A stretch of 64,000 nt of DNA, from assembly GCF_014904695.1 (NCBI RefSeq), contig NZ_JACXXN010000005.1, positions 1 to 64,000 on the forward strand. Reading direction: 5' to 3'. Source of the DNA: Nostoc sp. MG11 (lineage in GTDB: Bacteria; Cyanobacteriota; Cyanobacteriia; Cyanobacteriales; Nostocaceae). This document shows, piece by piece, positions 21,911-35,920 of the stretch. How positions within the stretch are numbered: position 1 is the stretch's first letter; each line of letters begins with the position of its first letter. The position numbers were made by a program, and so were the translations under genes. The notes beneath the pieces are model-generated. The model saw only the letters and a list, made by a program, of their open reading frames with translations, was not told the origin of the DNA and searched no databases.

Positions 21911-23917
21911 TTACTCGTCATCAACTTCTGATTCCTCTGCCCACTCAGGTGTAGTCATGGAGTCAGAAAATTCTGTGGTATCTTCTGTGAAGCGGATGAC
22001 TTGTCCGTTGAAAAATTCTGCTAAGCGCTGAGCTGCGATCGCTACTTCGTCAGGTTCCCAATTAGCAGGGGGTGTTTGGGGTTGCGCTTGCGGCAAAGTT
22101 TTTATTGCACTTCCACCATTTATCGCCATCGGCTCAGTTATTGTTGATGCTTGCTTGGCTGGTTGCGGTACTGGTGCTGGAGGCGGGATTTGACTGTCGT
22201 AACTGGGAGTAGGTGGTTGCTGAACACGAGTAGAGTCTTTTGGTAGAGGCTCTTTTCTGGCTGAGGTAGAGGTCGAAGAAATTCCTTTTTCTAGATTTAC
22301 CTTGACTTCATGTTGGAAAGTCTGCTGAAAAGCCGCCACAATCATCGGTAGATCAGATTTAACTTTTTCATACCATACTTGTTTGACCGCAATACAAGCT
22401 ACAGCACCATCAAACTCAATGAGATGGCACATTTGACGTAGCAGTTCTCGCCTTGAGATTGGCTGGAGGTTAGTAAGCACCTGTTGCCAAACCTGAGTTA
22501 AGTCATATTGTGATGTCTCAACCACTTCTGAGATTACTGGTTCAATTCTTGCAGGTGGCGGAGGAACAGATACAGGTTCTAGGCTTGGTAGTGATGAGTT
22601 ACCAGCATTGTGATTTGTTTGCGGCTCATCTGGGAGAGATGAAGTTACAGGGTGATTTTGGGCAACTGCTAGATGATGGTTTAGGGATGCAGAATTGTGA
22701 TTTGTTTGCGTCTCATTTAAAGGCAAAGAAGAGACTGCGTGATTTTTAGCAACTGCTGGAGGAGATGAAGATACAGCAGGTGTATTGACTCGCGGTGAAA
22801 TACTTGAGACTTGTGGCTGAATATTCGTTGCACTGGGTAACAATCCGAGTAATGTTACCTCTAACCATAAACGTGGCTGGGTGGTGTTTTTAATTTGTAC
22901 TTCAGCTGTTCGCAGGTGTTGCTGTCCCGCCAAAATTGCACTCATGTCCAACTTTTTGGCAAACTCAACCAGTGCTGTCCAGGTTTGGCGAGTGCAAGCA
23001 ACTAAATCGTGGCGGTTAGGTGCAGTTTGAGCAATCAGTAAATCGCGGTAGAATGCGGCGAGATTTTGGAGAATAGTTAACGGTTCTCGACCAAGATCTA
23101 GGATTTTACGGGTGCAGTCCAGAACGGCTTCTGGATTATTTTGAGCGATCGCATCTAAAAGCGCTAGTAAGTCCCGTTCGCTGACTGTACCGACTAAATC
23201 CCAAACTCGGTCTGGTGTCACCTCACCCGAAAACAAAGCTAATTGATCGAGTAGACTTTCAGCATCCCGCAATCCTCCCTGAGCAATTTGCCCTACCAAG
23301 GTAACAGCGTCAGGCGAAATAGTAATGTTTTCTTTAAGAGCGATCGCGCTTAAATGTCTCACCATCGCTTCTAATTGAATACGTCTAAAATCAAACCGCT
23401 GACAGCGCGAAATAATAGTTGGTAATACTCGCTGGGGATCGGTTGTCGCCAATACAAAAACTACATGCCTCGGTGGTTCTTCTAGTGTTTTTAGTAACGC
23501 ATTGAATGCCTGGGTACTGAGCATGTGGCATTCATCTACCACATAAACCTTGTAGCGACACTGCACAGGAGCAAACTGCGCCTTTTCAATTAGTTCGCGG
23601 ATGTTATCGACACCAGTATTGCTGGCGGCGTCGATTTCAATTACATCTAGGGAGTAACCCTTGGTGATTCCCTGACAAACATCGCACACGCCGCAGGGTT
23701 CAGCAGTAGGCTTGTCACTTTTCAAACAATTGAGAGATTTGGCCAAAATGCGGGCACTAGAAGTTTTCCCTGTACCTCTGGGGCCAGTGAACAAATAGGC
23801 AGGGGCGATTTTGGCTGTACGAATTGCGTTGGTGAGGGTGGTAGCGATCGCCTCTTGGCCCACCAGTTCAGCAAAACTCTTGGGGCGATACTTGTGGTGC
23901 AGGGGTTCGTAAGACAT
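21911..23917 (-). CDS. dnaX: DNA polymerase III subunits gamma/tau
   Basis: A 668-residue clamp-loader ATPase. The AAA+ part shows Walker A GPRGTGKTSSA, a four-Cys zinc site (CLKS..CGVCDVC), YVVDECHMLS, and the SRC motif ISRCQRFDF. Domain III follows, then a long Pro/Ser/Gln-rich linker (about 370-620) with many repeated SSLP and PPP stretches. The Pro-rich C-terminus is typical of tau. No intein interrupts the ATPase, unlike some cyanobacterial dnaX genes. ATG at 23917 gives MSYEPLHHKYRPKSF, the conserved start. Confidence 0.96.
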   Translation of the reverse strand: MSYEPLHHKYRPKSFAELVGQEAIATTLTNAIRTAKIAPAYLFTGPRGTGKTSSARILAKSLNCLKSDKPTAEPCGVCDVCQGITKGYSLDVIEIDAASNTGVDNIRELIEKAQFAPVQCRYKVYVVDECHMLSTQAFNALLKTLEEPPRHVVFVLATTDPQRVLPTIISRCQRFDFRRIQLEAMVRHLSAIALKENITISPDAVTLVGQIAQGGLRDAESLLDQLALFSGEVTPDRVWDLVGTVSERDLLALLDAIAQNNPEAVLDCTRKILDLGREPLTILQNLAAFYRDLLIAQTAPNRHDLVACTRQTWTALVEFAKKLDMSAILAGQQHLRTAEVQIKNTTQPRLWLEVTLLGLLPSATNIQPQVSSISPRVNTPAVSSSPPAVAKNHAVSSLPLNETQTNHNSASLNHHLAVAQNHPVTSSLPDEPQTNHNAGNSSLPSLEPVSVPPPPARIEPVISEVVETSQYDLTQVWQQVLTNLQPISRRELLRQMCHLIEFDGAVACIAVKQVWYEKVKSDLPMIVAAFQQTFQHEVKVNLEKGISSTSTSARKEPLPKDSTRVQQPPTPSYDSQIPPPAPVPQPAKQASTITEPMAINGGSAIKTLPQAQPQTPPANWEPDEVAIAAQRLAEFFNGQVIRFTEDTTEFSDSMTTPEWAEESEVDDE

Positions 23918-24159
23918 GGAGAAATTGACTTCAATGCCTTTTAACGTGTTGATTAGTAGCACCGAGTCGAGTTTGGTATTGCACTATTTTAACTAATTCC
24001 ACCAGAAGTCTGCCGCTATAAATATACTCACTTGGCGCTGCTTTGTAGATGTTGTCATACCCTAGAAGAGATCAGGAAATTTCCGTCTACACATTTTATT
24101 GACGGGAGTAAGGTTATGATACATTGCGATCGCTACAATCTTAGGGTAAGCAATACTCA

Positions 24160-24855
24160 ATGGTGCAGCAAATGCTCAGGCGGCTAGTTCAGTGGCTCAA
24201 AAGGCTTTTTCAACGCTTGTTTGGTAAAAAACAGACTGCCTCGAAAGTTAGGAGGGATGTGCAAAGAGAACCAGCACCACCTCTAACTGATACAGATTTG
24301 GAATTTCTTTTCAATGAACTTCTACAAGGAGTACATCAGGCAAGAGGACAAGCGTGGGCACTGAAGTGGCTGCATAATATTGAACATCGCATTCCAACTG
24401 AACGGTGGGTCGAATGGTTACGGCGCTTTGGTGAAAGATTGCTAGCATCACCCACGCCTAATAATGAAATAGCTGCGCGGTTGGTGCAACTGGGCGAGTT
24501 GAGCATCGGCGAAATCGGAGACGTTGCCTATGATATTGGTATGCAAATGCTGACGCGTAATCAAAGCGAACCAATTTGGGAATACGAAGGCCCAGATCAT
24601 CTCAGCATGATGCCGCTTGAAGAAACCTCACCAGTAATCACTGAGATAGATGGTACAGAAAACCTACCAGAGGAAGAATACCAAAGCGTCACCCTAGAAG
24701 AATTATTTATGATGTTGCAGCAAGATGAGAACTTACGCCAGCAGATGGCCCAACAACTAGCAATTGAGACAGATGATCCACAAATTATTGTCGATGCATT
24801 GTTGAATCAGTTCTATACTGCTGGCCAATCAACTACAGAGCAAACAGAAACTTGA
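24160..24855 (+). CDS. Free-standing N-module of the TPR-CHAT neighbour
   Basis: A 231-residue soluble protein. It starts with a basic amphipathic helix, MLRRLVQWLKRLFQRLFGKK, then a helical domain (about 40-140) containing GVHQARGQAWALKWL, RIPTERWVEWLRRFGERLL and QLGELSIGEIGDVAYDIGMQML. The neighbour at 25133 has the same domain at its N-terminus (LEGVHQERGQQWVLSYL, VPAERWIDWLQMFGEKLL, QLGELDVGRIGDLAYDIG). Its tail also matches the stretch just before the neighbour's TPRs (LEELFMML..AQQLAIET). No catalytic motif. The family is not one I recognise; a partner, regulator or decoy of the TPR-CHAT protein is inferred. Confidence 0.75.
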   Translation: MVQQMLRRLVQWLKRLFQRLFGKKQTASKVRRDVQREPAPPLTDTDLEFLFNELLQGVHQARGQAWALKWLHNIEHRIPTERWVEWLRRFGERLLASPTPNNEIAARLVQLGELSIGEIGDVAYDIGMQMLTRNQSEPIWEYEGPDHLSMMPLEETSPVITEIDGTENLPEEEYQSVTLEELFMMLQQDENLRQQMAQQLAIETDDPQIIVDALLNQFYTAGQSTTEQTET

Positions 24856-24890
24856 CCAAATCGGTGAACGTTTAGGAGTGCTGAGTTAGG

Positions 24891-24924
24891 AGTGCTGAAG
24901 CGCAGTAGCGAGGCGTTTAGCCCG
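24891..24924 (-). repeat. Dispersed 34-nt repeat, copy 1
   Basis: AGTGCTGAAGCGCAGTAGCG followed by AGGCGTTTAGCCCG. The same sequence, with one mismatch, lies in the opposite orientation at 30481-30514. Both copies are intergenic and flank the CHAT/CAAD block. Confidence 0.85.
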
Positions 24925-25132
24925 TCCTGAGTCAGTATTTATTCTCCCCCTGCCCTCTTGCCCCCTTGCCCACTGCTCCCCTGCTCCCCTCAGCAGGACG
25001 ACTACTAATTAAGTTTTGTGTATTTTTTGCCAGTTATGATGACAGCGTTGTCCATATATAGTGGGTTTTTACGTAATTCATGATTTTTTTAACACAACGA
25101 TGGCTACAATCTAGTAGAAACAAAATCCAAGA

Positions 25133-28100
25133 GTGCGGCAGATGCTCAGGCGGCTATTGCATTGGCTTAATAGATATTGGAAGCGCCCCTTTGGCAGTAA
25201 GCAGACTCGTTCTCTAAAGGGTGCAAGGCGGCACAAGCTCGTAAGATCACTACCAGAACTAACCAATGCGGATCTGGAACAATTGTTTGCCCAGTTGTTG
25301 GAAGGCGTGCATCAAGAACGAGGACAGCAATGGGTATTGAGTTATCTGCGGCGATTAGAAAATCGCGTTCCGGCTGAGCGCTGGATAGATTGGTTGCAGA
25401 TGTTTGGCGAAAAATTGCTAAATTCATCTACACCAAATCATCAGTTAGCAACGCGGATGGTGCAATTGGGTGAATTAGACGTTGGTAGAATAGGCGACCT
25501 TGCCTATGACATTGGTACACGGTTATTAATGCAAAACTTACCCGCAGAAAACTTACTACCTATAGAGTATGAAAACCATGAGGCGCAAGATAGTGTCGCA
25601 ACCACTATGCCTGAAGATACCCTGTCTAGCTCTCCTGGGCAAGAATTGATCCGGAACTTGGGCGAACAATCATGGGAATATGATGAGCAGGATGATGTTG
25701 TCGAAACCATAGCGCCTGAAGAAATCCTGCCAACATCTCCTGGGCAAGAACTGATTCGCAACTTAGGCGAACAGTTATGGGAATATGATGATCAAGTTGC
25801 CGAGACAGTAGCATCAGCACCAGAAAACACTGCTGTTGAGGAAAGATTGACCGATAACTTGGAAAAAGTAAGAGGGGAGTATGAACAGAAAGATGCCCAA
25901 ACTACAGAACCAGCAGGTTTCCTCGTCCCAGCACAAGAAGATTCAATCACCAACTTAGGCGAACTCAGGTGGGGATACGAAGAAGAGAATACCCCAACTA
26001 CAAGATCAACAAAAGCAGCAAATCTCATTACTCCCACTGAGCCAATCTGGGATAACTCATTGGTAAATTTAGAACCAGATGTAGCGTACACTTTAGATGA
26101 GTTGTGGATAAGGTTAGATCAGAGTACGAATTTAGTCCAACAACTGGCTTCTAATCTGGCAATTCAAACAGGCAATACCCCAAGTATAGTTGAGCGACAA
26201 ACTCATCAATCAAATGCGGTTGCACCAGATCAAGCATGGTTTTACCAAGGTCTTCAGCAAGCTAAAACTGGCGATTTGTTGGGAGCGATCGCCTCTTACG
26301 ACAAAGCTATAGAACTTCAGCCAAATTATCACGAATATTGGTTTAATCGAGGCTTAACGCTATTTCATTTAGAACGTTTTACCGAAGCGATCACGGCCTA
26401 CGAAACAGCCATAGAACTGAAACCCGATTTTTACAAAGCTTGGCACAAACATGGCGGAACTCTGGGAGAATTAGGAAACTTTGAAGAAGCGATCGCCTCG
26501 TTTGATAAAGCCATAGAAATCAAGCCGGATTATCAAGAAGCTTGGTCTAGTCGGGGTTTAGCACTGCTGAAATTAGGATGGTTGAGAGAGGCAATTTCTA
26601 GTTATGACCAAGCCCTAAATCTGCAACCAGAAGACCAAGAAAACTGGTATTACCGGGGTATCGCCTTGGCTGTAGGCGAGCAATATGAAGAAGCGATCGC
26701 ATCTTACGACAGAGCGCTAGAACTTCAACCGGAATTCCACGAAGTTTGGATAGACCGGGGTGTAGTACTGTTTAATTTAGGGAAATGGTCAGAAGCGATC
26801 GCCTCTTGGGACAGAGCGCTCTCAGACCAACCCGACTTCTACTTAGCTTGGTTTAACAGAGGTATAGCTTTAGACAACTTGGGACGCCGTGAAGAAGCGA
26901 TCGCCTCCTATCGCAAAGCTATAGAAATTAAACCCGACTTTCACTTGGCTTGGTATAACCAGGCGATCGCCCTGTTTCATTTAGAACAATATGCCGAAGC
27001 GATCGCCTGCTATGACAGCGCTTTGCAAATCAAACAGGACTATTGGGAAGCTTGGATTGGTCGAGGAACTGCTGCGGGACATTTAGTTAATCCCGACGGG
27101 AGTACCGCCCTGCAACAGGGTGGCTATGAGGGAAAATTAGCCAGCTACGAGGAAGGATTGAAACATCTGCGCCCAGATACCCACCCAGAAGGTTGGGGTA
27201 GATTGCATCTGGCGATCGGCAATACTTACTACGAACAAGGAAAGAAAAATCCTAAACCCCGCGATGATTGGCGCAAAGCTGTAGCTGAATATCACCAGGC
27301 GTTGTTAACCCTCACATCAGAAGATTTTGCTCCGTTGCATCTGGAGGTTTTGCAATCTCTGAGCAAAGTGCTTGTGGGTTTGGGACAAACAACACAAGTA
27401 CCAGAATTACAACAACGCGGCACAGATTTATTGCAACAATTGCTAAGTGAAGCAACTCGCTCTGATGAAAGTAAAAAACAACTAGCTTTGAAATTTTCAG
27501 GCTTTGGTCAATTAGCAGTTGATTTAGCTGTGGAGTCGGGCGATTTAGTCGAAGCTTGGGAAATGGCAGAACAAGGCAAAAATTCTTGTTTAAACTGGCT
27601 ACTTTTTGGTTGGAGTAACGAGATTTCCTCACTCAATTATGGTGCAGTTCAACAACTACTCAATCCCACAACAGCAATTGTTTACTGGCATATCAGCCCA
27701 GCTGCCTTACACACTTTCATTCTCAAAGATGGAGCGCCATCACCAATTTTACTCTTTACACCCATACAAGATGTAGGAACAATATCTTCAGGTGAAACTG
27801 CTGTACGTCTCAATGAATTGCCCCTACCCGAAGCGGCGCGACGTTTAGTTGAATTTGAAGATTGGCTGGAAGATTGGCATCAACAATACCAGGGATATAA
27901 TACCGCTCAAGATAAAGAAAGTAAAGCTAAGCATTCTTGGCGAGTGGATATGGAACAAAAGCTGTTGCAGCTGAAAAACATCCTGAATATTTCCACAATT
28001 GTACAAGAACTTGAAGGTGTCACCCAACTGATTTTAATTCTCCACCGCGACTTGCACAGATTGCCTATTCACGTACTTTTCCATCTCTCTTCTCCATCTC

Positions 28101-28915
28101 AGGAAGAGTTACCGAATATGGGGGCGAATTTTACAATTACTTATTTGCCTAGCGCTCAAGTAGGTTTATCAATCAAAACCGAAGATATTAAACAGTGGCA
28201 TAATCAGTTGTTACTTAGTGTTGAATATCCCGATAGTGTTGGTTATTCTCAACTTAAGTTTGCTAAACTTGAATCTGAAATTGTTAGTCAGATGTTCGAT
28301 AATACCCAGCGAATCCAGGGAACACAAGCCACAAAAAATATTGTAGAAAATGCTTTTGCTGATTACAACATATTTCATTTTACTGGTCATGTCACTAACA
28401 ATTTGAGTGAGCCTAAAAAATCAGCATTGGTCTTAGCAGGTGAAGACAAACTAACTTTAGAAGAAATCCATCAAAAAAATCTCGCAAGTTTTAACCTTGT
28501 TACCCTGTCTGCTTGTGAAAATATAAGTACTATTAACCACAATATCAGCACTGAATATGTAGGTTTAGTCAGTAGTTTTCTGAGTGGAGGAGTTCCTCAT
28601 ATCGTTAGTACCCTTTGGACTGTAGAATCATCTGCTAGCGCCTTGGTGATGATAGAGTTTTACCGAAAGTTACAGCCAAATAAATCGGCAACTACTGCCT
28701 TAGCAGAAGCAACAATATGGCTGAAAGAACTAACTGCTGGAGAACTGACAAAATGGTATGAGGATTTATTGAATAATCTGCAACCAGAGGAGTTAAGAAT
28801 TAAAGCTTACTTGGCAACCCAGTTATATAGAAGTAGTAAAATGGTATTAGAGAAAAAGCTTTATAATCATCCTTACTACTGGGCAGCATTTATAATCACG
28901 GGTAAGCCGAATTAA
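25133..28915 (+). CDS. TPR-CHAT protease candidate
   Basis: A 1260-residue protein. Residues 1-145 repeat the module of the upstream gene; 150-330 is an acidic linker with four degenerate repeats around LIRNLGEQ.WEYD; about nine 34-residue TPRs fill 365-660 (for example AIASYDKAIELQPNYHEYWF); a helical part with SWR and Trp-rich stretches follows; the CHAT (caspase-HetF) domain occupies about 900-1260, with the catalytic pair His1086 (FHFTGH) and Cys1128 (LSACE) and the LSGGVPHIVSTLW block. CHAT domains are caspase-like cysteine proteases found in defence and cell-death systems. GTG at 25133 is preferred because it aligns with the start of the paralogue; ATG 25142 is possible. Confidence 0.85.
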   Translation: MRQMLRRLLHWLNRYWKRPFGSKQTRSLKGARRHKLVRSLPELTNADLEQLFAQLLEGVHQERGQQWVLSYLRRLENRVPAERWIDWLQMFGEKLLNSSTPNHQLATRMVQLGELDVGRIGDLAYDIGTRLLMQNLPAENLLPIEYENHEAQDSVATTMPEDTLSSSPGQELIRNLGEQSWEYDEQDDVVETIAPEEILPTSPGQELIRNLGEQLWEYDDQVAETVASAPENTAVEERLTDNLEKVRGEYEQKDAQTTEPAGFLVPAQEDSITNLGELRWGYEEENTPTTRSTKAANLITPTEPIWDNSLVNLEPDVAYTLDELWIRLDQSTNLVQQLASNLAIQTGNTPSIVERQTHQSNAVAPDQAWFYQGLQQAKTGDLLGAIASYDKAIELQPNYHEYWFNRGLTLFHLERFTEAITAYETAIELKPDFYKAWHKHGGTLGELGNFEEAIASFDKAIEIKPDYQEAWSSRGLALLKLGWLREAISSYDQALNLQPEDQENWYYRGIALAVGEQYEEAIASYDRALELQPEFHEVWIDRGVVLFNLGKWSEAIASWDRALSDQPDFYLAWFNRGIALDNLGRREEAIASYRKAIEIKPDFHLAWYNQAIALFHLEQYAEAIACYDSALQIKQDYWEAWIGRGTAAGHLVNPDGSTALQQGGYEGKLASYEEGLKHLRPDTHPEGWGRLHLAIGNTYYEQGKKNPKPRDDWRKAVAEYHQALLTLTSEDFAPLHLEVLQSLSKVLVGLGQTTQVPELQQRGTDLLQQLLSEATRSDESKKQLALKFSGFGQLAVDLAVESGDLVEAWEMAEQGKNSCLNWLLFGWSNEISSLNYGAVQQLLNPTTAIVYWHISPAALHTFILKDGAPSPILLFTPIQDVGTISSGETAVRLNELPLPEAARRLVEFEDWLEDWHQQYQGYNTAQDKESKAKHSWRVDMEQKLLQLKNILNISTIVQELEGVTQLILILHRDLHRLPIHVLFHLSSPSQEELPNMGANFTITYLPSAQVGLSIKTEDIKQWHNQLLLSVEYPDSVGYSQLKFAKLESEIVSQMFDNTQRIQGTQATKNIVENAFADYNIFHFTGHVTNNLSEPKKSALVLAGEDKLTLEEIHQKNLASFNLVTLSACENISTINHNISTEYVGLVSSFLSGGVPHIVSTLWTVESSASALVMIEFYRKLQPNKSATTALAEATIWLKELTAGELTKWYEDLLNNLQPEELRIKAYLATQLYRSSKMVLEKKLYNHPYYWAAFIITGKPN

Positions 28916-29344
28916 AGTTTTTAGATGTTAAATAGCGGTTAAAAATTTGAAAACTGTTAAATTTAATCGTGTTAAATTCTTCCAGTCTCAAATGTGATAA
29001 AGAATAATCTCCACCTATATAACTTTACAGAATATTACGCTATGTTAAATATTCCTGTTGTGTCACCACAGGCTAGCAATAAACATGAAATCAAAAAAAA
29101 TAACGAAAACCAATAAAAGACACTATTTATATGTATTATTTTAGACAATATATCTAAAATAAACTACAATCTAAACTTTTAATTTTTTTGTTCATTTAAA
29201 ATTAAAATTTGAAAAGTTTTCTCCTATAACTTTTGAGAGAGACAAAACTTATTCCAAGAGGCTGATGAGAATTAGAGTAAAAAATGTAGAAATGGTATTA
29301 TTACATTTGTACATTTGTGAAGAAATAGTTTTTTCTTATAACCT
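28916..29344. other. AT-rich spacer
   Basis: About 430 bp of very AT-rich DNA between the TPR-CHAT and CAAD genes, low in HIP1 sites. It should hold the CAAD promoter. No ORF, hairpin with T-run or repeat array of note. Confidence 0.5.
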
Positions 29345-29800
29345 ATGGAAAGCCAAGTACAACAATCAGAATTCGTCGATGTTACCTCACCAAAGAGTAT
29401 GACAATGGTTCAAACTTCAGAACCAGGAAATTTGTCAACACTACCAAGTGCTAATAAATCTAGCGATAAAGCGTCAGAAATAGGCAGAAAAATTTCTAAC
29501 TTTTTGGAACGCTTACCGGAATACGTAGTCAACTTCTTCAATGAATACAAGTTACCAGTTATTAGCTTTGCTTTGCTTGTGGTGGGGGTTACTGGACTCA
29601 GGGTACTATTGGCAATAGTAGATGCAATAAATGATATTCCGCTTGTGTGTCCATTTTTTGAGTTGATTGGAATTGGTTACGTAACTTGGTCTGTTTTTCG
29701 CTATTTTCTCAAAGCTTCTACTCGCCAAGAATTAGCCGCAGAAATGCGCTCTATTAAAGAGCAAATTGCAGGCGAAAATGTCTCAGAGCCAATGAGTTAA
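29345..29800 (+). CDS. Stand-alone CAAD-domain membrane protein
   Basis: A 151-residue protein: a polar N-terminus (1-60), then the cyanobacterial aminoacyl-tRNA synthetase appended domain with two membrane helices, VISFALLVVGVTGLRVLLAIVDAINDIPLVCPFFELIGIGYVTWSVFRYFL, and a charged tail. The same domain is inserted into valS at 47085 ([21 protein letters not shown]). CAAD anchors some synthetases to thylakoids in Anabaena-type cyanobacteria; plant CURT1 proteins are related and shape thylakoid membranes. This copy has no synthetase, so a membrane-curving or scaffolding role is more likely. Confidence 0.88.
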   Translation: MESQVQQSEFVDVTSPKSMTMVQTSEPGNLSTLPSANKSSDKASEIGRKISNFLERLPEYVVNFFNEYKLPVISFALLVVGVTGLRVLLAIVDAINDIPLVCPFFELIGIGYVTWSVFRYFLKASTRQELAAEMRSIKEQIAGENVSEPMS

Positions 29801-30273
29801 ACGTAGCATGGTAGTGACTAAAAAAGTTTGTACTTTTTTGCAAAGTTTCTCTGTATATAATTGCTGCGAAATCTGGTTGAAAATGGCAGTCAATAAAGCA
29901 TGTCTACCTTAGAAGCTTGGTAAATGAGCTGGGTTGACGTGCTTTTGTATCTGTTTTATTGAAAGTAGATTACTAATTGCGATCTCGCCATATCTGCATT
30001 TAGCTGCTTCGTTTCAGGATAGTGTTTTGCTCACTAGCAATTTGCAGAAATTAGGTTTTGGGTTTTAGTCTCGAATTTTGGCATTGCTGATTGAGAAGAT
30101 GGATTTTGTCTCACACAGAGGCGCAGCGAAAAGTATGTAGCAAGTGGCTTCTGGCGATAGCGTAGCGGTAGCGAGTCATCGTACTACGCCTTGCTTGGTC
30201 TTGTAGAGAAGGACTCATAGACGCGGTAGCGGCTTGCCCCAGGGTAGGACGCAAAGAGAAGCAAGAAATCAGA

Positions 30274-30381
30274 ACTTACGCACTCAGATCCCCCAACCCC
30301 CTTTTTAAGGGGGCTTTACACGTTCCCCCCTTAAAAAGGGGGGTTAGGGGGGATCAGGGTTTCAGGCTTCAGTGCGTAAGT
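30274..30381. mobile_element. MITE-like element, 108 bp
   Basis: Ends are perfect 11-nt inverted repeats ACTTACGCACT and AGTGCGTAAGT. Inside them are longer imperfect arms, GATCCCCCAACCCCC with CTTTTTAAGGGGG and their complements, so the whole element folds into one long hairpin. It encodes nothing. No target-site duplication is obvious. Confidence 0.8.
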
Positions 30382-30480
30382 CCTAGAAATGCTTAACTGA
30401 ACTGTATTGAGATATAGCCGTAGTCACATAGGTTATGACTGTGTTGATTGCAACAGAGCAATAAGGCAACTAGGTTTATA

Positions 30481-30514
30481 CGGGCTAAACGCCCCGCTAC
30501 TGCGCTTCAGCACT
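30481..30514 (+). repeat. Dispersed 34-nt repeat, copy 2
   Basis: CGGGCTAAACGCC then CCGCTACTGCGCTTCAGCACT; the inverse of 24891-24924 with one mismatch. Confidence 0.85.
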
Positions 30515-30628
30515 AGTACCTCAACAGATTAGGAAATGCTATATATGATTCTGACTTAAGAAAGACGCTAAAAATATTATTAAATTACAAAATATTTTTA
30601 TTAATTTATAGTATAGGAACTCCCTTCA

Positions 30629-32308
30629 ATGGGTGAAACACAAAGTTTAATTGAATTTAAGTTGTTTGCTCCTCGGAATCAGGGAGCAAATTTAATTGGG
30701 TATTTTTCTAGTTGGCAAGAAATACCAATGCAAAAGGGTGAAGATGGGTATTTTCGGACTCAAGTAAAACTAGAAGACGGCGTTTATGAATACAAGTTTC
30801 GCGTTCAAAGCAAAAGTCCAAATTTTGCACCTGATGAATGGGTAGATGTGATTGACCCCAACACAACAGATGTTAATGAACAAAAAAAACTTGGACTATT
30901 GCGGATAAAAGATGGGCAACGCATTGTTGATACTTACATTTGGCAGCACGACGAAACATCGTTACCTGATAATCGAGAATTAGTTATATATGAAATGCAC
31001 GTTGCAGATTTTACAGGTGATGAGGTTGATCCAGACAAACGAGGTAAATATTTAGGAGTAATTGAAAAGTTAGATTATCTCTGTGAATTGGGAATTAACG
31101 CAATTGAATTAATGCCAGTCAATGAGTACCCTGGTGATTATAGCTGGGGTTATAAAGTGCGTCACTTCTTCGCTACAGAATCTAGTTATGGTTCAACAGA
31201 AGATTTAAAGCAGTTGATTGACGAGTGTCATGGTAGAGGCATTCGCGTTTTCATGGATGGAATTTATAACCATACAGATGAAGAATGCCCTTTAATGTTG
31301 ATTGATCAGAATTACTGGTACTATGAACATAAACATTATCCAGAAGACCCAGATAATTACTGGGGCCCAGAGTTTAACTATAATAATTACGATGAAAAAT
31401 TAGATGTTAAGCCTGCATGGAAATATGTTGGGGACGTAGTGCAATTTTGGATTCAGGAGTATCACATTGATGGAATTCGTTTTGATGCAGTCAGCCAATT
31501 AGCTAACTTTGAATTTTTAGACTGGCTGGCTAAGCAAGCGAAAAACCACGCAGCACCCAAGCAGTTTTATAATATTGCCGAACGTATTCCCGATACAAGT
31601 ACTGTAGTCAAGCCAGACGGCCCCCTAGATGCTTGTTGGCATGAGAGTTTTCACTACTTTATAGTGCCACTGATTTGTGGAGAAAAATTTGAATTAGAAC
31701 AACTCAAGCAGGTTTTAGATCCCAAACAGCAAGGATATGCGATCGCCCTAAATGTGATAAATTATTTGGCAACCCACGATCGCCAGCGTCTATTTCGAGA
31801 ATTAGGCAATCATGGTGTCTTTGATGCAGCTGCGTTTGGGCGAGCGAAGTTAGCAGCCATCCTCTTAATGACAGCGATGGGTATACCAATGCTGTGGATG
31901 GGAGAAGAGTTTGGCGAACACCAACCCAAAAGCGAAAGTGTGACTAAGCCGCAGAAAATTACTTGGTCTTTGTTGGAAGACAAGCAGAATCGAGATTTAC
32001 TTGAGTTTTACAAAAAACTTATTGCTTTACGCAAAGAAAATTTAGCCCTGCAAAGTGACAATATAGAATTTTTCCACGAAAACACCGATGCTAAAGTGCT
32101 AGCGTACGCCCGCTGGGATGAGCAGGATTCTTATGTTGTCGTCGTAGCAAATTTCTCCGACCAAAATTTAAATAAATATGAAATTTCAGACTTCCCAACA
32201 GCTGAATACTGGCGAGACTGGTTTGGGAACTGTGAAGTAGAAGCTGGGGAGGATTGTCTAATCACAAACTTGCCAAGTTATACAGCCAAGATATTTGTTT
32301 CTCAGTAG
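30629..32308 (+). CDS. GH13 alpha-amylase family enzyme
   Basis: A 559-residue glycoside hydrolase. An N-terminal CBM48/E-set domain (about 1-95, YFSSWQEIPMQKGEDGYFRT, YEYKFRV) is followed by the TIM barrel with conserved regions VFMDGIYNHT, GIRFDAVSQL (nucleophile Asp286), NIAERIP (acid/base Glu318) and NYLATHDRQR (Asp384), and a C-terminal beta domain. The layout resembles glycogen-branching or trehalohydrolase-type enzymes but is shorter than GlgB, so alpha-glucan hydrolysis or transfer is certain while the exact specificity is not. Monocistronic, after a repeat-rich spacer. Confidence 0.88.
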   Translation: MGETQSLIEFKLFAPRNQGANLIGYFSSWQEIPMQKGEDGYFRTQVKLEDGVYEYKFRVQSKSPNFAPDEWVDVIDPNTTDVNEQKKLGLLRIKDGQRIVDTYIWQHDETSLPDNRELVIYEMHVADFTGDEVDPDKRGKYLGVIEKLDYLCELGINAIELMPVNEYPGDYSWGYKVRHFFATESSYGSTEDLKQLIDECHGRGIRVFMDGIYNHTDEECPLMLIDQNYWYYEHKHYPEDPDNYWGPEFNYNNYDEKLDVKPAWKYVGDVVQFWIQEYHIDGIRFDAVSQLANFEFLDWLAKQAKNHAAPKQFYNIAERIPDTSTVVKPDGPLDACWHESFHYFIVPLICGEKFELEQLKQVLDPKQQGYAIALNVINYLATHDRQRLFRELGNHGVFDAAAFGRAKLAAILLMTAMGIPMLWMGEEFGEHQPKSESVTKPQKITWSLLEDKQNRDLLEFYKKLIALRKENLALQSDNIEFFHENTDAKVLAYARWDEQDSYVVVVANFSDQNLNKYEISDFPTAEYWRDWFGNCEVEAGEDCLITNLPSYTAKIFVSQ

Positions 32309-32400
32309 TAGCAACAAAGTTGATTCCACATCCAGCTTGAGGGCTGTGATATTATGGGAGACTGCTGCATACATTTAGAAAACTAGAAATTAAATCGATC

Positions 32401-32670
32401 ATGGCTCTGACGCAACTGCGAAAACAGGAAATAATCTCCAACTACCAAGTTCACGAAACCGATACCGGCTCTGCCGAAGTCCAGGTTGCCATGTTAACTG
32501 AGCGTATCAACCGCCTCAGCGAACATCTCCAAGCAAACAAGAAAGACCATTCTTCCCGGCGGGGACTTTTAAAGCTAATTGGTCAGCGCAAGAGTCTTCT
32601 AGCTTATATCCAGCAAGGAAGCCGGGAAAAGTATCTAGCTTTAATTGCTCGTCTCGGTATTCGTGGATAG
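32401..32670 (+). CDS. rpsO: 30S ribosomal protein S15
   Basis: An 89-residue protein, the normal length. [61 protein letters not shown] and the [12 protein letters not shown] ending are all conserved. S15 binds 16S rRNA early in small-subunit assembly and in other bacteria represses its own translation; an AT-rich leader lies upstream. It is followed by the PAM68 gene 12 bp later, and a hairpin after that ends the unit. Confidence 0.98.
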
Positions 32671-32682
32671 GAGCGAAAGCTT

Positions 32683-33153
32683 ATGTCTACTGAAGAATCT
32701 GAACGCAGTCGCTTGCCTTTTGAACCAAATAAAAAGCGCCAAAAACCCGCAAAAACTCAAAATAAGCCCCCAGCAAAGTTAAAGACTTCTGAGGAACAGG
32801 CTCGCAAGCAACCGCCTTACACCAAAGAAGAAATGACAATCCCCCAAGTCGTCAGTCAACGGATGATTCGACGAGTGGCTGGATTCTGTGGTATCCCAAC
32901 AGCTTTGGGCATTACTACCCTAGTTGTCAGCTATCTACTTGCCATCTACTCTGACATCACACTACCTCCCATCGCCGTGTTGTTGGTCAATATGGGATTA
33001 TTTGGTTTGGGGGTGTTAGGGATAACTTACGGCGTTCTCTCTGCCTCTTGGGATGAAGAAAGAGTTGGAAGTCTAATGGGTTTTGGCGAATTCAGCATCA
33101 ATTGGGGACGAATGGTGGCAGTTTGGCGCGAAACTCGGCAAAAGAAAGTATAG
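32683..33153 (+). CDS. PAM68-type photosystem assembly protein
   Basis: A 156-residue protein: a charged, Lys/Pro/Gln-rich N-terminus (1-60), then IPQVVSQRMIRRVAGFCGIPTALG leading to two membrane helices (about 70-92 and 100-122) and a conserved end SASWDEERVGSLMGFGEFSINWGRM. These features match the PAM68 family (Synechocystis Sll0933), which helps photosystem II assembly near CP47 in thylakoids. Co-transcribed with rpsO, 12 bp downstream of its stop. Confidence 0.88.
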   Translation: MSTEESERSRLPFEPNKKRQKPAKTQNKPPAKLKTSEEQARKQPPYTKEEMTIPQVVSQRMIRRVAGFCGIPTALGITTLVVSYLLAIYSDITLPPIAVLLVNMGLFGLGVLGITYGVLSASWDEERVGSLMGFGEFSINWGRMVAVWRETRQKKV

Positions 33154-33205
33154 TTACCAGCGCTCAGGCATCAATTAACTGCGAGATTGGGTAAATTTTA
33201 AAGTG

Positions 33206-33239
33206 AATGTTGAAGTTGAAACCTTATAACTTCAACATT
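33206..33239 (+). terminator. Candidate terminator of rpsO-PAM68
   Basis: AATGTTGAAGTT and AACTTCAACATT (12-nt perfect arms, 10-nt loop) are followed by an AT-rich stretch (GCTAATTAAAATTTT). The T-run is short, so efficiency is uncertain. Confidence 0.55.
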
Positions 33240-33405
33240 GCTAATTAAAATTTTATAATTATTTTTGTACCCAATATTCAGTTACTAAGTATTAAAGTGA
33301 CTGAGCGCTGTATCTTATTTTAATTATTTGTAATTAAGCAGATAGGCAACAATAAAGTTATGCCTCTTTACTAAAGAATTTACTTTAATAATTAGGAACT
33401 TTCGT

Positions 33406-34464
33406 ATGATTGTCGTAATGAAAAGTGGTTCCCCTGAAGCGGAAATAAATCGCATTAGCGAGGAACTGACCAGCTGGGGATTAACACCAGAAAAAATTGT
33501 TGGTCAACACAAAGTAGTGATTGGTCTAGTAGGTGAAACCGCTAGCTTAGACCCGCTACAAATTCAGGAAGTTAGCCCCTGGATTGAGCAAGTATTGCGG
33601 GTAGAGCAACCTTACAAACGGGTTAGCCGCCAGTTCCGCCACGGGGAAGCTTCTGAAGTTGTGGTTGACACTCCCAATGGAGTAGTTGTATTTGGTGAAC
33701 ACCACCCTTTGGTAGTCGTTGCAGGCCCCTGCTCCGTAGAAAATGAAGAAATGATTGTAGAGACGGCGCGGCGCGTCAAGACAGCTGGAGCAAAATTTTT
33801 GCGGGGTGGGGCATACAAACCCCGAACTTCTCCTTACGCCTTTCAAGGACATGGCGAGAGTGCTCTGGAATTATTGGCGATCGCACGAGAAGTCAGCGGA
33901 CTAGGTATTATTACAGAAGTGATGGACGCCACCGACCTAGATAAAATCGCAGAAATTGCTGATATCATCCAGGTAGGCGCAAGGAATATGCAGAATTTCT
34001 CCATGCTGAAAAAGGTGGGAGCGCAGTCCAAACCAGTTCTCTTGAAGCGGGGAATGGCGGCTACCATTGAAGACTGGTTGATGGCAGCAGAGTATATTCT
34101 GGCAGCGGGAAATCCCAATGTAATTTTATGTGAACGGGGAATTCGCACCTTTGATCGCCAGTATACTAGAAATACACTGGATATATCAGTAGTACCAGTG
34201 TTGCGAAAGCTAACTCACCTGCCAATCATGATTGACCCCAGCCACGGCACAGGCTGGTCTGAGTTTGTACCTTCAATGGCAATGGCTGCGATCGCAGCTG
34301 GCACTGATTCCCTGATGATTGAGGTTCACCCCAATCCCGCTAAAGCCTTATCCGATGGGCCGCAATCTTTGACACCAGACCGTTTCGACAACCTGATGCC
34401 AGAATTAGCAGTGATTGCTAAAGCAGTAGGACGCTGGCAACAACCAGCGGTGGCGATCGCTTAA
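33406..34464 (+). CDS. aroF: 3-deoxy-7-phosphoheptulonate synthase (DAHP synthase)
   Basis: A 352-residue type I-beta DAHP synthase: an N-terminal ferredoxin-like regulatory domain (about 1-75), then the TIM barrel with VVAGPCSVENEEMIVETA, KFLRGGAYKPRTSPYAFQG, KPVLLKRGM and the closing PIMIDPSHGTG. It condenses phosphoenolpyruvate and erythrose 4-phosphate, the first step of the shikimate pathway. The ferredoxin-like domain usually carries feedback inhibition by aromatic amino acids. Monocistronic; an intrinsic terminator lies downstream at 34503. Confidence 0.96.
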   Translation: MIVVMKSGSPEAEINRISEELTSWGLTPEKIVGQHKVVIGLVGETASLDPLQIQEVSPWIEQVLRVEQPYKRVSRQFRHGEASEVVVDTPNGVVVFGEHHPLVVVAGPCSVENEEMIVETARRVKTAGAKFLRGGAYKPRTSPYAFQGHGESALELLAIAREVSGLGIITEVMDATDLDKIAEIADIIQVGARNMQNFSMLKKVGAQSKPVLLKRGMAATIEDWLMAAEYILAAGNPNVILCERGIRTFDRQYTRNTLDISVVPVLRKLTHLPIMIDPSHGTGWSEFVPSMAMAAIAAGTDSLMIEVHPNPAKALSDGPQSLTPDRFDNLMPELAVIAKAVGRWQQPAVAIA

Positions 34465-34502
34465 AATTCGGTGAGTAACTTCATTTATAAAGCTAATTAA
34501 GG

Positions 34503-34528
34503 AGCATCTATCATGCTAGATGCTTTTT
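34503..34528 (+). terminator. Intrinsic terminator of aroF
   Basis: AGCATCTA and TAGATGCT (8-nt arms, 6-nt loop) are followed directly by TTTT and ATAATTTT, about 40 bp after the aroF stop. Confidence 0.7.
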
Positions 34529-34603
34529 ATAATTTTGGTTAGAACAGACAACATCTTGCACCAAGAGCTAATTAAATCTACTAGTTTATATGAAACTTGA
34601 GAA

Positions 34604-35023
34604 CTAACCCCAGGCAATAACAATAAAAACGGCAATTAGCGAAACCAAACCAAATAGAATAATTGAACCAACAGTAATGGTCATCAGATTATACGAGCGA
34701 ATTGGTCTATATAAATAGTCATTTCGCTTCAGTGATTGAACCGCCACCAGGTATATAAATATAGCTATAATTAACAGAAAAATGCCTAAAGCAATTACAC
34801 TCAAACCAATGATGTGAGTCCATCTTGCGTTAATAACTGTACTATTATCAGGAAACGCTTGATGGAGCGCACTAAAAATCCGATCAAAAGCAATACCAAA
34901 TCCAATCAAAGATAAGCAATTCTGAATCCAGCTTGTTAAGGTTCGTTCAGCAGCAGCGCGATTGCGCTCTTTAGCTAATTCGTTAGTGAGATTAGTGAGT
35001 TTCTTGAAAGGGTTAGAACTCAT
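34604..35023 (-). CDS. DUF202 membrane protein (YidH-like), copy 1
   Basis: A 139-residue protein beginning with a charged stretch LAKERNRAAAERTLTSWIQNCLSLIGFGIAFDRI, the DUF202 signature, and three membrane helices. The gene after it on the same strand (35082) is a paralogue with LAKERNRAAAERTLMAWIRTCLTLISFGF. DUF202 proteins share the YidH fold and have no established role. The divergent charged N-termini suggest a cytosolic end. Tandem duplication is likely. Confidence 0.88.
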   Translation of the reverse strand: MSSNPFKKLTNLTNELAKERNRAAAERTLTSWIQNCLSLIGFGIAFDRIFSALHQAFPDNSTVINARWTHIIGLSVIALGIFLLIIAIFIYLVAVQSLKRNDYLYRPIRSYNLMTITVGSIILFGLVSLIAVFIVIAWG

Positions 35024-35081
35024 GAGCAGCTTTTTGGACTGAGCAGAATTGATAGCAAACGTAAGAATTCCATAAGCAAAA

Positions 35082-35495
35082 TTAAAAAGTTGCCTTTACC
35101 AAAATCCCCACAAATGCAAAAATACCAATGCAGACTAGTGCGATCGCAACAGTCAATCCCAAAGAGCGGCGAGGGTTATAAAGATATTCCTCGTGACTCT
35201 GGATATGACGTAGTTCTTTACCGTGTTCTATTGCTGCAACGATCATGGCATACGTACCCAGAATAATAAAAGCAATACTCAAAATACGAGAAAGACGCAC
35301 AGGATTGATGTTTTTAGCCACTTCCAAGCTATAGACAGCACTCACTATCGCATCAATCCCAAAGCCAAAGCTGATTAGGGTAAGACAGGTGCGAATCCAT
35401 GCCATCAAAGTACGCTCAGCCGCAGCTCGGTTGCGCTCTTTGGCAAGTTCAGCTTGAATATTAATTGGTTTGCGAGTAGGGATAGGATCATTCAT
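35082..35495 (-). CDS. DUF202 membrane protein (YidH-like), copy 2
   Basis: A 137-residue paralogue of the preceding gene: three hydrophobic segments, the RTLMAWIRTCLTLISFGFGID block with conserved Arg and Trp, and a short polar loop HGKELRHIQSHEEYLYNPRRSLGL. The two genes are in the same direction with 58 bp between them, the downstream copy (34604) starting just after this one ends, so they are probably co-transcribed. Function unknown. Confidence 0.88.
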   Translation of the reverse strand: MNDPIPTRKPINIQAELAKERNRAAAERTLMAWIRTCLTLISFGFGIDAIVSAVYSLEVAKNINPVRLSRILSIAFIILGTYAMIVAAIEHGKELRHIQSHEEYLYNPRRSLGLTVAIALVCIGIFAFVGILVKATF

Positions 35496-35920
35496 TTTGA
35501 ATCAGCTAAATTTTAGCAAATTTCCTCACATTTTATCTCTCATGAAAACATAAATATAATCTATTAAATATTGGAAGAATTAATTTCAGTTTGAATTAAT
35601 TATTATAGAGATTTAGTAACTGTATAACTTATTTTTTTTATCTATATTTTGTCAATTTACGTCCTACTTAAACTCTTTTGTAGACTTTGAACCAATACTG
35701 TGTAATAAATATTAACGTATGCGTTAAAACAATTATGAAGTTACTGATTTACTTTGTAACAACCGTAACAAAATCGATGTCACTTAATAAAGGAAAATCT
35801 GTTTGATAATCTGCAAACACCTGCATAATTTTTTGACCTTCGAGCGATCAATCAATACAATACCCATGTGCATGAGAAGCTTTACCTAGGCTGTCATGCA
35901 ACAACATTGAGGAATGCACA
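35496..35920. other. AT-rich regulatory spacer
   Basis: About 425 bp between the divergent DUF202 pair and sucrose-phosphate synthase. It is AT-rich and contains the motif TTGTAACAACCGTAACAAAA near 35757-35776. Promoters for both sides are expected. No ORF or RNA gene was seen. Confidence 0.5.

What the first reader, a model, noticed from the sequence alone, without database searches (positions are those of the whole stretch)
24160..28915. A free-standing module paired with a TPR-CHAT protease candidate that carries the same module
The 231-residue protein matches the N-terminus of the 1260-residue protein along its whole length: basic opening helix, the GVHQxRGQxW..ERWxxWL..QLGEL..GDxAYDIG domain and the later LEELF/LDELW segment. 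The long protein then adds TPRs and a CHAT domain with an intact His1086/Cys1128 pair. The upstream sequence also looks shared (GCTACAATCT before both genes). A shared interaction module suggests the small protein docks on, restrains or feeds the protease. CHAT proteases take part in cell-death and defence systems, so a small sensor-plus-protease pair is plausible; that is inference.
Basis: partly seen in the sequence, partly recalled or inferred. Interest (0 to 1): 0.72.

Follow-up and report, generated by a model that had tools for sequence, protein, structure and literature searches.

The report
Conserved gene pair with failing protease
Two neighbouring genes shared by nearly all heterocyst-forming cyanobacteria examined arose by an old duplication, and the larger one carries a protease-type domain whose shape is kept while its catalytic residues are lost again and again.

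Summary
In detail: the 231-aa protein and the N-terminus of the 1260-aa TPR-CHAT protein share a module (55% over 135 residues), and the window copy has His1086/Cys1128. The interpretation mostly does not.

The pair is not an accessory defence cassette. It is old, vertical and near-universal in its family (module in 214 of 217 genomes; small gene followed by the large one in 74 of 80 loci), beside dnaX. Outside the family, single-copy module genes without CHAT sit beside dnaX in 9 of 20 loci, so the pair is one old tandem duplication.

In the large gene the catalytic pair is repeatedly lost: 37 of 82 rows keep both residues, 16 changes on the tree, at least 9 on strong branches. Yet the CHAT region stays under purifying selection, and two control CHAT families kept both residues in every row checked.

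Best reading: a probably membrane-surface scaffold pair whose CHAT domain acts mainly without catalysis. The large protein's linker repeats a peptide found once in the small protein, suggesting docking. Membrane binding, docking and pathway are inference.

The parts
24160..24855 (+). small gene, 231 aa: free-standing module protein without TPRs
24166..24222 (+). N-terminal cationic amphipathic helix of the small protein (residues 3-21)
   Evidence: helix in the AF2 model at pLDDT about 62; hydrophobic moment 0.86, charge +5 (best of 12 offsets, so optimistic)
24289..24564 (+). five-helix core of the shared N-module (residues 44-135)
   Evidence: AF2 helices 44-59, 63-75, 80-96, 102-113, 117-135, block pLDDT mostly 85-95; alignment A1; no Pfam family at E <= 1
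24538..24597 (+). helix-5/WEY tail peptide GMQMLTRNQSEPI-WEYEGPD (residues 127-146), one copy
   Evidence: motif once in 87 of 91 small proteins; a WEY-type motif after the module in 9 of 30 extra-family rows
24685..24831 (+). segment II, three helices (residues 176-224)
   Evidence: also seen in single-copy relatives with and without TPRs
24132..24141 (+). conserved upstream element GCTACAATCT with -10-like TACAAT, small gene
25103..25112 (+). the same element upstream of the large gene
25133..28915 (+). large gene, 1260 aa: module + linker + TPRs + CHAT
25133..25537 (+). N-module of the large protein (residues 1-135)
25634..25690 (+). linker peptide repeat 1 (PGQELIRNLGEQS-WEYDEQ, W181)
25739..25795 (+). 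linker peptide repeat 2 (PGQELIRNLGEQL-WEYDDQ, W216)
25931..25987 (+). degenerate linker motif (W280); score to the small profile only 0.1
26084..26194 (+). segment II-like stretch (residues 318-354)
26228..27112 (+). TPR array (approximately residues 366-660)
27113..28912 (+). C-terminal 600 residues: helical part plus CHAT, folding like Csx29 and separase
   Evidence: AF2 pLDDT 83, pTM 0.87; Foldseek best 8eex_B Csx29 E 5.7e-13, separases from E 3e-10
27971..28903 (+). CHAT domain (residues 947-1257)
   Evidence: E 5e-40
28388..28390 (+). codon of His1086, catalytic position; intact here, in 37 of 77 orthologous CHATs
28514..28516 (+). codon of Cys1128, catalytic position; intact here, in 63 of 77 orthologous CHATs
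21911..23962 (-). dnaX (DNA polymerase III gamma/tau; name recalled from the sequence, no family search run), divergent neighbour

Best explanation
The two genes are an old tandem-duplicate pair that descends from a dnaX-linked module gene of the order Cyanobacteriales. Today's single-copy relatives at that place encode N-module + linker + segment II, some with TPRs and some without, and no CHAT. Before the heterocyst-forming family diversified the gene existed in two copies: one without TPRs (the small protein) and one with TPRs and a C-terminal CHAT. Shown here: shared ancestry, near-universal retention, purifying selection on both genes, repeated loss of the CHAT catalytic residues with retention of the CHAT region, and several copies in the large protein's linker of a peptide that the small protein carries once. 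Inferred: both proteins sit on a membrane surface through the cationic amphipathic helix; module and WEY-type peptides let the small protein, or a common third partner, dock on the large one; and the CHAT domain serves mainly as a non-catalytic binding or scaffold domain, with protease activity optional and lineage-specific (the window copy may still be active). The pathway is unknown; a housekeeping role fits the distribution better than phage defence. Where the CHAT part came from, and whether TPRs were lost by the small copy or gained by the large one, is not resolved.
For: Distribution: 214 of 217 family genomes match the small protein, 210 of them at least twice by my count; exactly two matches in the window's own genome. 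Adjacency, same strand: 74 of 80 loci. Locus: dnaX in 70 of 80 family loci; the divergent neighbour of the module gene in 9 of 20 other loci, in two with a 99-aa ORF between. Single-copy or dnaX-side relatives: 15 distinct proteins scanned, 10 with TPRs, 5 without, 0 with CHAT. Tree: small and large modules form one clade (100/99); large 100/93, small 85/84. Selection: CHAT C-half dN/dS 0.08-0.36 (median 0.175) in 10 pairs that both lack the dyad, 0.06-0.35 (median 0.13) in 9 that both keep it. Dyad: 82 rows = 37 with H and C, 26 lacking only H, 14 lacking both, 5 without the catalytic half; 16 changes, at least 9 forced by strong branches. His1086 column 48% conserved, 9th percentile of 415 CHAT columns; flanking H1082, F1083, G1085 in 74, 76, 75 of 77. 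Control: His and Cys in 31 of 31 rows of each of two other CHAT families. Fold: C-terminal part models as Csx29/separase type. Amphipathic helix significant in 89 of 90 small and 78 of 82 large proteins. Linker motifs: 206, mean score to the small-protein profile 7.9 against -10.8 (sd 8.2) shuffled.
Against: Cys1128 is kept in 63 of 77 CHATs, better than His, though this is only the 55th percentile of CHAT columns. 37 of 82 rows, the window included, keep an intact dyad, so some lineages may use protease activity. CHAT N-half dN/dS reaches 0.50 in one dyad-less pair. Linker motifs are absent in 17 of 83 large proteins and about half of the motifs do not exceed the 99th percentile of linker 13-mers. 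The control rows are the 30 best-scoring of 60 genomes, nearest homologs rather than proven orthologs. No interaction, membrane association or complex was tested. The small protein survives without the large one in G177. G176, G191 and G208 showed no module, though G208 has a CHAT-half match; G103 has only a divergent module-CHAT gene (L183). The module tree joins the family pair to other module-CHAT genes rather than to single-copy genes, on a very short branch (91/82, length 0.007), so CHAT fusion may be older than the family.
Confidence: 0.6

Rival explanations
1. One reading: a small sensor or inhibitor restrains or feeds an active TPR-CHAT protease in a cell-death or defence system.
For: Intact His/Cys in the window and in 37 of 82 rows. 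The fold is that of active proteases, Csx29 and separase. Module-bearing TPR-CHAT proteins elsewhere (L183, L184, L187, L189, L190) are followed by a ~140-aa protein and a ~450-aa coiled-coil protein with hydrophobic C-terminal stretches, which looks like a protease plus membrane effector.
Against: Near-universal vertical retention beside dnaX; dyad lost many times with both genes kept; no match in the phage collection and only three weak partial plasmid matches; no specific defence-family match; none of the window's ORFs just downstream matches the effector-type partners (0 of 11).
Confidence: 0.12
2. A HetF-PatU3-like regulatory pair: the small protein is a substrate or activator of the protease in lineages with an intact dyad, tied to cell division or heterocyst development.
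For: HetF is a CHAT protein reported to cleave PatU3 (passages of PMC12288457). The pair is near-universal in the heterocyst-forming family. A CHAT gene of Nostoc 7120, all2170, is implicated in heterocyst formation (passages of PMC10811720), but I could not establish whether it is this gene.
Against: Dyad or CHAT loss in genomes that keep hetR: hetR was found in all 10 family genomes tested whatever their CHAT state (hetR alone does not prove heterocysts). HetF has its CHAT within residues 1-555; here CHAT is C-terminal.
Confidence: 0.15
3. The CHAT domain is simply decaying after loss of function, and only the module and TPRs matter.
For: No strong match to the catalytic half in 16 of 16 genomes of genus g18; CHAT partial in L172, L175, L176 and absent in L173, L174; a C-terminal remnant lies behind the stop in L175.
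Against: In dyad-less pairs CHAT dN/dS stays low (C-half median 0.175), and mean column conservation of CHAT (0.757) exceeds that of the N-module (0.725) over 77 rows.
Confidence: 0.13

Closest known systems
TPR-CHAT proteins (PF12770), above all Csx29 of type III-E Craspase
   Same: TPRs followed by a C-terminal CHAT; nearest solved fold (8eex_B, Foldseek E 5.7e-13); Csx29 model matches weakly by sequence (32.5 bits, E 4e-8).
   Different: Far below the Csx29 cutoff (300 bits); extra N-module; repeated loss of the dyad among orthologs.
Separase
   Same: Second group of fold matches (from E 3e-10).
   Different: No detectable sequence relation (no PDB hit at E <= 0.01); no securin-like partner known here.
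HetF of Anabaena PCC 7120 (CHAT protein, divisome component; acts on PatU3)
   Same: CHAT and TPR protein of heterocyst formers.
   Different: HetF's CHAT is within residues 1-555, with TM and TPR regions also named (passages of PMC8406250); here CHAT is C-terminal and the N-module is extra.
Pseudo-orthocaspases of cyanobacteria (PMC6426788, abstract and outline)
   Same: Caspase-like fold kept with the catalytic His/Cys replaced (there by Tyr/Ser); here Tyr is the commonest His replacement (15 of 40).
   Different: p20 orthocaspase family, not TPR-CHAT; no paired module protein mentioned in what I saw.
Inactive caspase-like domains in the effector position of MoxR-vWA conflict systems (passage of PMC7159879)
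   Same: The authors report about 70% of those caspase domains inactive and suggest regulatory or peptide-binding roles.
   Different: Accessory, variable systems; this pair is core and conserved.
Three-gene TPR-CHAT / ~140 aa / ~450 aa coiled-coil loci seen here (L184, L187, L189 etc.)
   Same: Some of their CHAT proteins carry the same N-module.
   Different: Not beside dnaX in the stretches read; dyad intact in 6 of 7 aligned (L186, with a weak ~159-aa partner match, aligns Pro/Cys); separate clade in the module tree.

Membership tests
CHAT domain family (PF12770) | Pfam match above the gathering cutoff | tested here: met
   138.2 bits against 24
Csx29/separase-type fold | structural match of the C-terminal part | tested here: met
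   AF2 pTM 0.87; 41 PDB matches at E <= 0.001, the best being Csx29 and separase chains
CHAT peptidases (active) | His/Cys dyad in this protein | tested here: met
   H1086, C1128
CHAT peptidases (active) | dyad conserved among orthologs, as expected if catalysis is the selected function | tested here: not met
   37 of 82 rows keep both; controls 31 of 31 rows each
CHAT peptidases (active) | proteolytic activity | not testable with these tools
   needs assay
Csx29 / Craspase | Csx29 model above cutoff | tested here: not met
   32.5 bits against 300
HetF | CHAT at the N-terminal side | tested here: not met
   CHAT is at residues 947-1257 of 1260; HetF layout from passages of PMC8406250
HetF-PatU3 type protease-substrate pair | cleavage of the partner | not testable with these tools
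   needs assay
Anti-phage defence system in PADLOC-DB | specific defence model match | tested here: not met
   small protein none; large only two TPR models at E <= 0.01
Three-gene TPR-CHAT / 140 aa / 450 aa system | the two partner genes downstream | tested here: not met
   0 of 11 ORFs in window 28916-36000 match either partner

The most novel reading that the evidence does not exclude
A module widespread in one cyanobacterial order and absent from the curated families searched (cationic membrane helix + five-helix domain + WEY tail peptide) anchors a core scaffold. In heterocyst formers it is split into a small module protein and a TPR-pseudoCHAT partner that displays several mimics of the small protein's tail peptide. 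The CHAT domain is then a conserved pseudoprotease, a peptide-binding regulator kept for its fold while catalysis is repeatedly switched off. The same module is also carried by apparently active three-gene CHAT systems, perhaps as a bait or guard for the core scaffold.
Probability: 0.3. Interest if true: 0.72.

Novelty: new variant of a known kind. Interest (0 to 1): 0.55.

Why it matters
CHAT proteins are usually read as proteases of defence or development. Here is a pair kept by nearly all heterocyst-forming genomes searched in which that reading fails on evolutionary grounds: the fold is under selection, the active site much less so. It gives a natural series (intact dyad, His lost, both lost, domain removed) for asking what a CHAT domain does without catalysis, in genetically tractable cyanobacteria. 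It also points to a module found in most sampled genomes of the order that I could not match to a curated family, and to a concrete docking hypothesis. It warns against calling defence systems from domain names.

Tried and rejected
Recent truncated duplicate under relaxed selection: rejected. Mobile or defence island: rejected (dnaX-linked, vertical; phage collection no match; plasmids 3 weak partial matches). Known fold for the module: Foldseek against PDB gave nothing at E <= 0.001 (best 0.57, generic helical and TPR designs); sequence profile against PDB best E 0.046 to a Ter macrodomain protein, not credible. CHAT region by sequence against PDB: none at E <= 0.01. Link to heterocyst loss: not supported, G176 and G177 keep hetR. 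Mapping all2170 of Nostoc 7120 onto this gene: failed, no annotated PCC 7120 chromosome in reach. Alternative catalytic His: H1082 is in 74 of 77 rows, but it is the first His of the H-x-x-x-H motif that both controls also show, so I do not count it as a replacement (inference).

Mended on checking: I first held that the ancestor was module + TPR and that the small copy lost its TPRs. A scan of six dnaX-side genes outside the family found TPRs in one and none in five. My labels wrongly put family rows (L174, L175, L178, L181) under 'ext'; the tree itself is unaffected. L178, cut by its contig end, was counted as without CHAT; without it the tree still needs 16 changes.

Papers: PMC8406250, PMC8195603, PMC7159879, PMC10811720, PMC12507012, PMC7517822 and PMC12288457 seen as found passages; PMC6426788 as abstract and outline; PMC7283527 searched for dnaX, no hit. 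That I found no paper on this gene pair rests on the searches in an open-licence library only.
Full report
OBSERVATION. Both ORFs are at the stated coordinates. The small protein matches the large one at 55% over residues 2-134 and again at 46% over 37 residues further on. Pfam has no family for the small protein at E <= 1 and NCBIfam only two matches far below cutoff; the large one has TPRs and a CHAT domain at 947-1257. H1086 and C1128 are present. GCTACAATCT precedes both genes; TACAATCT lies in the last 90 bases upstream in 42 of 81 small and 54 of 74 large genes, about 0.2 in base shuffles (rows related). Each gene thus seems to keep its own promoter-like element; the gap between the genes was 140-2266 bases in 73 loci.

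SPREAD AND AGE. The window's genome has two matches to the small protein. In its GTDB family 214 of 217 genomes match, 210 at least twice by my count; G103, G141, G177 and G179 match once, G176, G191 and G208 not at all. G103's match is a divergent module-CHAT gene (L183) and G141's is a large gene near a contig start. Of 80 loci with the small gene (the tool kept the best 80 of 87), 74 have a same-strand large gene downstream, L109 with module and CHAT in separate ORFs. Two lack it at a contig end (L081, L095) and four within the 7 kb held (L091, L092, L093, L099). The large protein's module (160 aa) was found in 326 of 388 sampled genomes of the order, and the module profile in 79 of 292 of the phylum, of which only G553 and G737 lie outside the order. 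Outside the family it is often a single gene, in some genomes up to six or seven. It is retained in two genomes of 1.4-1.5 Mb (G467, G476), which argues for a housekeeping role.

LOCUS AND ANCESTRY. dnaX (name recalled) is recognised in 70 of 80 family loci and is the divergent neighbour of the module gene in 9 of 20 other loci (L224-L230, L234, L236; in L227 and L229 a 99-aa ORF lies between). Of those nine, four have TPRs (L225, L227, L230, L236) and five do not (L224, L226, L228, L229, L234), ending like the small protein with a disordered-looking linker and segment II. None of the 15 distinct single-copy or dnaX-side proteins that I scanned has CHAT. In the module tree (90 rows, 144 columns, weak in detail) the family's small and large modules form one clade (100/99) that splits into large (100/93) and small (85/84): one old tandem duplication at the dnaX place. 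The pair joins other module-CHAT genes rather than single-copy genes, but on a branch of 0.007 (91/82), so the origin of the CHAT fusion is open. G248 has a module-TPR gene followed by a module-TPR-CHAT gene near dnaX (L185); those two pair with each other (96/67), possibly an independent repeat.

THE PROTEASE READING FAILS. I aligned 83 large proteins of the family. L178 is cut by its contig end; of the other 82, 37 keep H and C, 26 lack only the His, 14 lack both and 5 lack the catalytic half. The tree needs 16 changes between intact and lost, at least 9 forced by strong branches, with or without L178; some could be regains. His is replaced by Y, R, Q, N, S, A or V; 36 of 40 replacements are one base from a His codon. 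H1082, F1083 and G1085 are in 74, 76 and 75 of 77 rows, H1086 in 37 (9th percentile of 415 CHAT columns), C1128 in 63 (55th percentile). Control: two other CHAT families of the same bacterial family, mean column conservation 0.82 and 0.72 (0.757 here), keep His and Cys in 31 of 31 rows each. Each set is the query plus the 30 best-scoring of 60 genomes, one being the query's own genome, and nearest homologs rather than proven orthologs. A search of 208 family genomes with the catalytic half gave E below 1e-49 in 182 (my count; threshold chosen afterwards). All 16 genomes of genus g18 are among the other 26, though all 16 have at least two module matches; G096 and G097 are too, but the locus of G097 shows a diverged CHAT with V/Q (L180). 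L173 and L174 stop after the TPRs; L172, L175 and L176 hold part of CHAT; only L175 has a clear remnant downstream.

BUT THE FOLD IS KEPT. Pairwise dN/dS over 20 species pairs (some share a species): small gene 0.06-0.38. CHAT C-half 0.08-0.36 (median 0.175) in the 10 pairs where both lack the dyad and 0.06-0.35 (median 0.13) in the 9 where both have it; CHAT N-half 0.12-0.50 and 0.12-0.36; one pair is mixed. These are counting estimates at low divergence, so single values are noisy, but they do not look like a decaying domain outside g18 and G195. An AlphaFold2 model of the window's last 600 residues (pLDDT 83, pTM 0.87) matches Csx29 (best E 5.7e-13) and separases (from 3e-10) in the PDB, with low TM-scores (about 0.4) over the full length.

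ANATOMY OF THE SHARED MODULE. AlphaFold2 on 60 sequences gives a helix at 3-21, a five-helix domain at 44-135 (block pLDDT mostly 85-95), a disordered stretch and a three-helix segment at 179-224; overall pLDDT 71, pTM 0.44. No PDB fold match. The first helix is cationic and amphipathic in 89 of 90 small and 78 of 82 large proteins, 18 of 20 and 10 of 10 outside (best of 12 offsets against shuffles, so optimistic). Membrane-surface binding is a fair inference. The small protein has one WEY-type motif in 87 of 91 rows. The large protein's linker has 1-6 in 66 of 83 rows and none in 17, and the TPR region none. The 13 residues before the W resemble the small protein's tail (206 motifs, mean score 7.9 against -10.8, sd 8.2, shuffled; 51% above the 99th percentile of linker 13-mers). 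Outside the family 9 of 30 rows show such a motif after the module. Motifs within a protein and related species are not independent. I read this as amplified docking peptides; that is inference.

MECHANISM. Most likely: a membrane-surface scaffold made of two proteins, docking through module or peptide, with a CHAT domain used chiefly as a binding domain. Shown: ancestry, retention, selection, dyad loss, peptide amplification. Inferred: membrane, docking, pathway. The small protein persists without the large one in the single-contig genome G177 (L177; one module match), so it is not merely a brake on the large one. The window copy, with its dyad, may still cleave something.

LITERATURE. HetF is the known CHAT protein of this group, a divisome component (passages of PMC8406250), reported to cleave PatU3 (passages of PMC12288457). 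Pseudo-orthocaspases are a precedent for inactive caspase-like proteins in cyanobacteria (abstract of PMC6426788); inactive caspase domains with suggested regulatory roles are reported in conflict systems (passage of PMC7159879). A CHAT gene all2170 of Nostoc 7120 was mutated, with a second mutation, in a phage-resistant strain that made no heterocysts (passages of PMC10811720) and appears again in PMC12507012 (passage); whether it is this gene is open.

SIDE FINDING. Some module-bearing TPR-CHAT proteins away from dnaX sit in an operon with a ~140-aa and a ~450-aa protein; 6 of 7 aligned keep the dyad. The 450-aa family occurs in 176 of 320 order genomes. Of 30 of its loci read with about 1.5 kb flanks, 18 have a CHAT ORF beside it, 15 the full three-gene set and 2 an ORF with the N-module. 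This may be the real protease-effector system of the neighbourhood.

Noticed in passing
L184:2185-7024, L187:1911-6966, L189:2166-7260, L190:2081-7001; also L239-L265: Three-gene operon: TPR-CHAT, a ~140-aa protein, and a ~450-aa coiled-coil protein with hydrophobic C-terminal stretches; the last is found in 176 of 320 genomes of the order. Looks like a protease plus membrane effector system; no credible Pfam match for the two partners.
   Followed up: partly
L185:2652-6871 (genome G248): Outside the family, a module-TPR gene is followed directly by a module-TPR-CHAT gene near dnaX; the module tree pairs them (96/67), hinting at an independent repeat of the same duplication.
   Followed up: partly
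L226:4795-5898: TPR-less dnaX-side module protein whose linker holds about four tandem repeats of its own (SPQVIYVDAEK..DPWND), different from the WEY repeats of the window protein.
   Followed up: no
L218:4318-5436 and L219:4701-5795: The module-TPR protein is retained in two genomes of only 1.4-1.5 Mb, suggesting an important function.
   Followed up: no
window's genome G000: 26 CHAT-domain matches in one genome; only one lies on a protein with the N-module, since the genome has just two module matches.
   Followed up: partly
L175:2923-5535 and downstream: CHAT truncated by a stop with a recognisable C-terminal remnant right behind it, while congener genome G196 has a full-length match: recent erosion.
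   Followed up: partly
window 24950-25010: C-rich short repeat-like stretch between the two genes.
   Followed up: no
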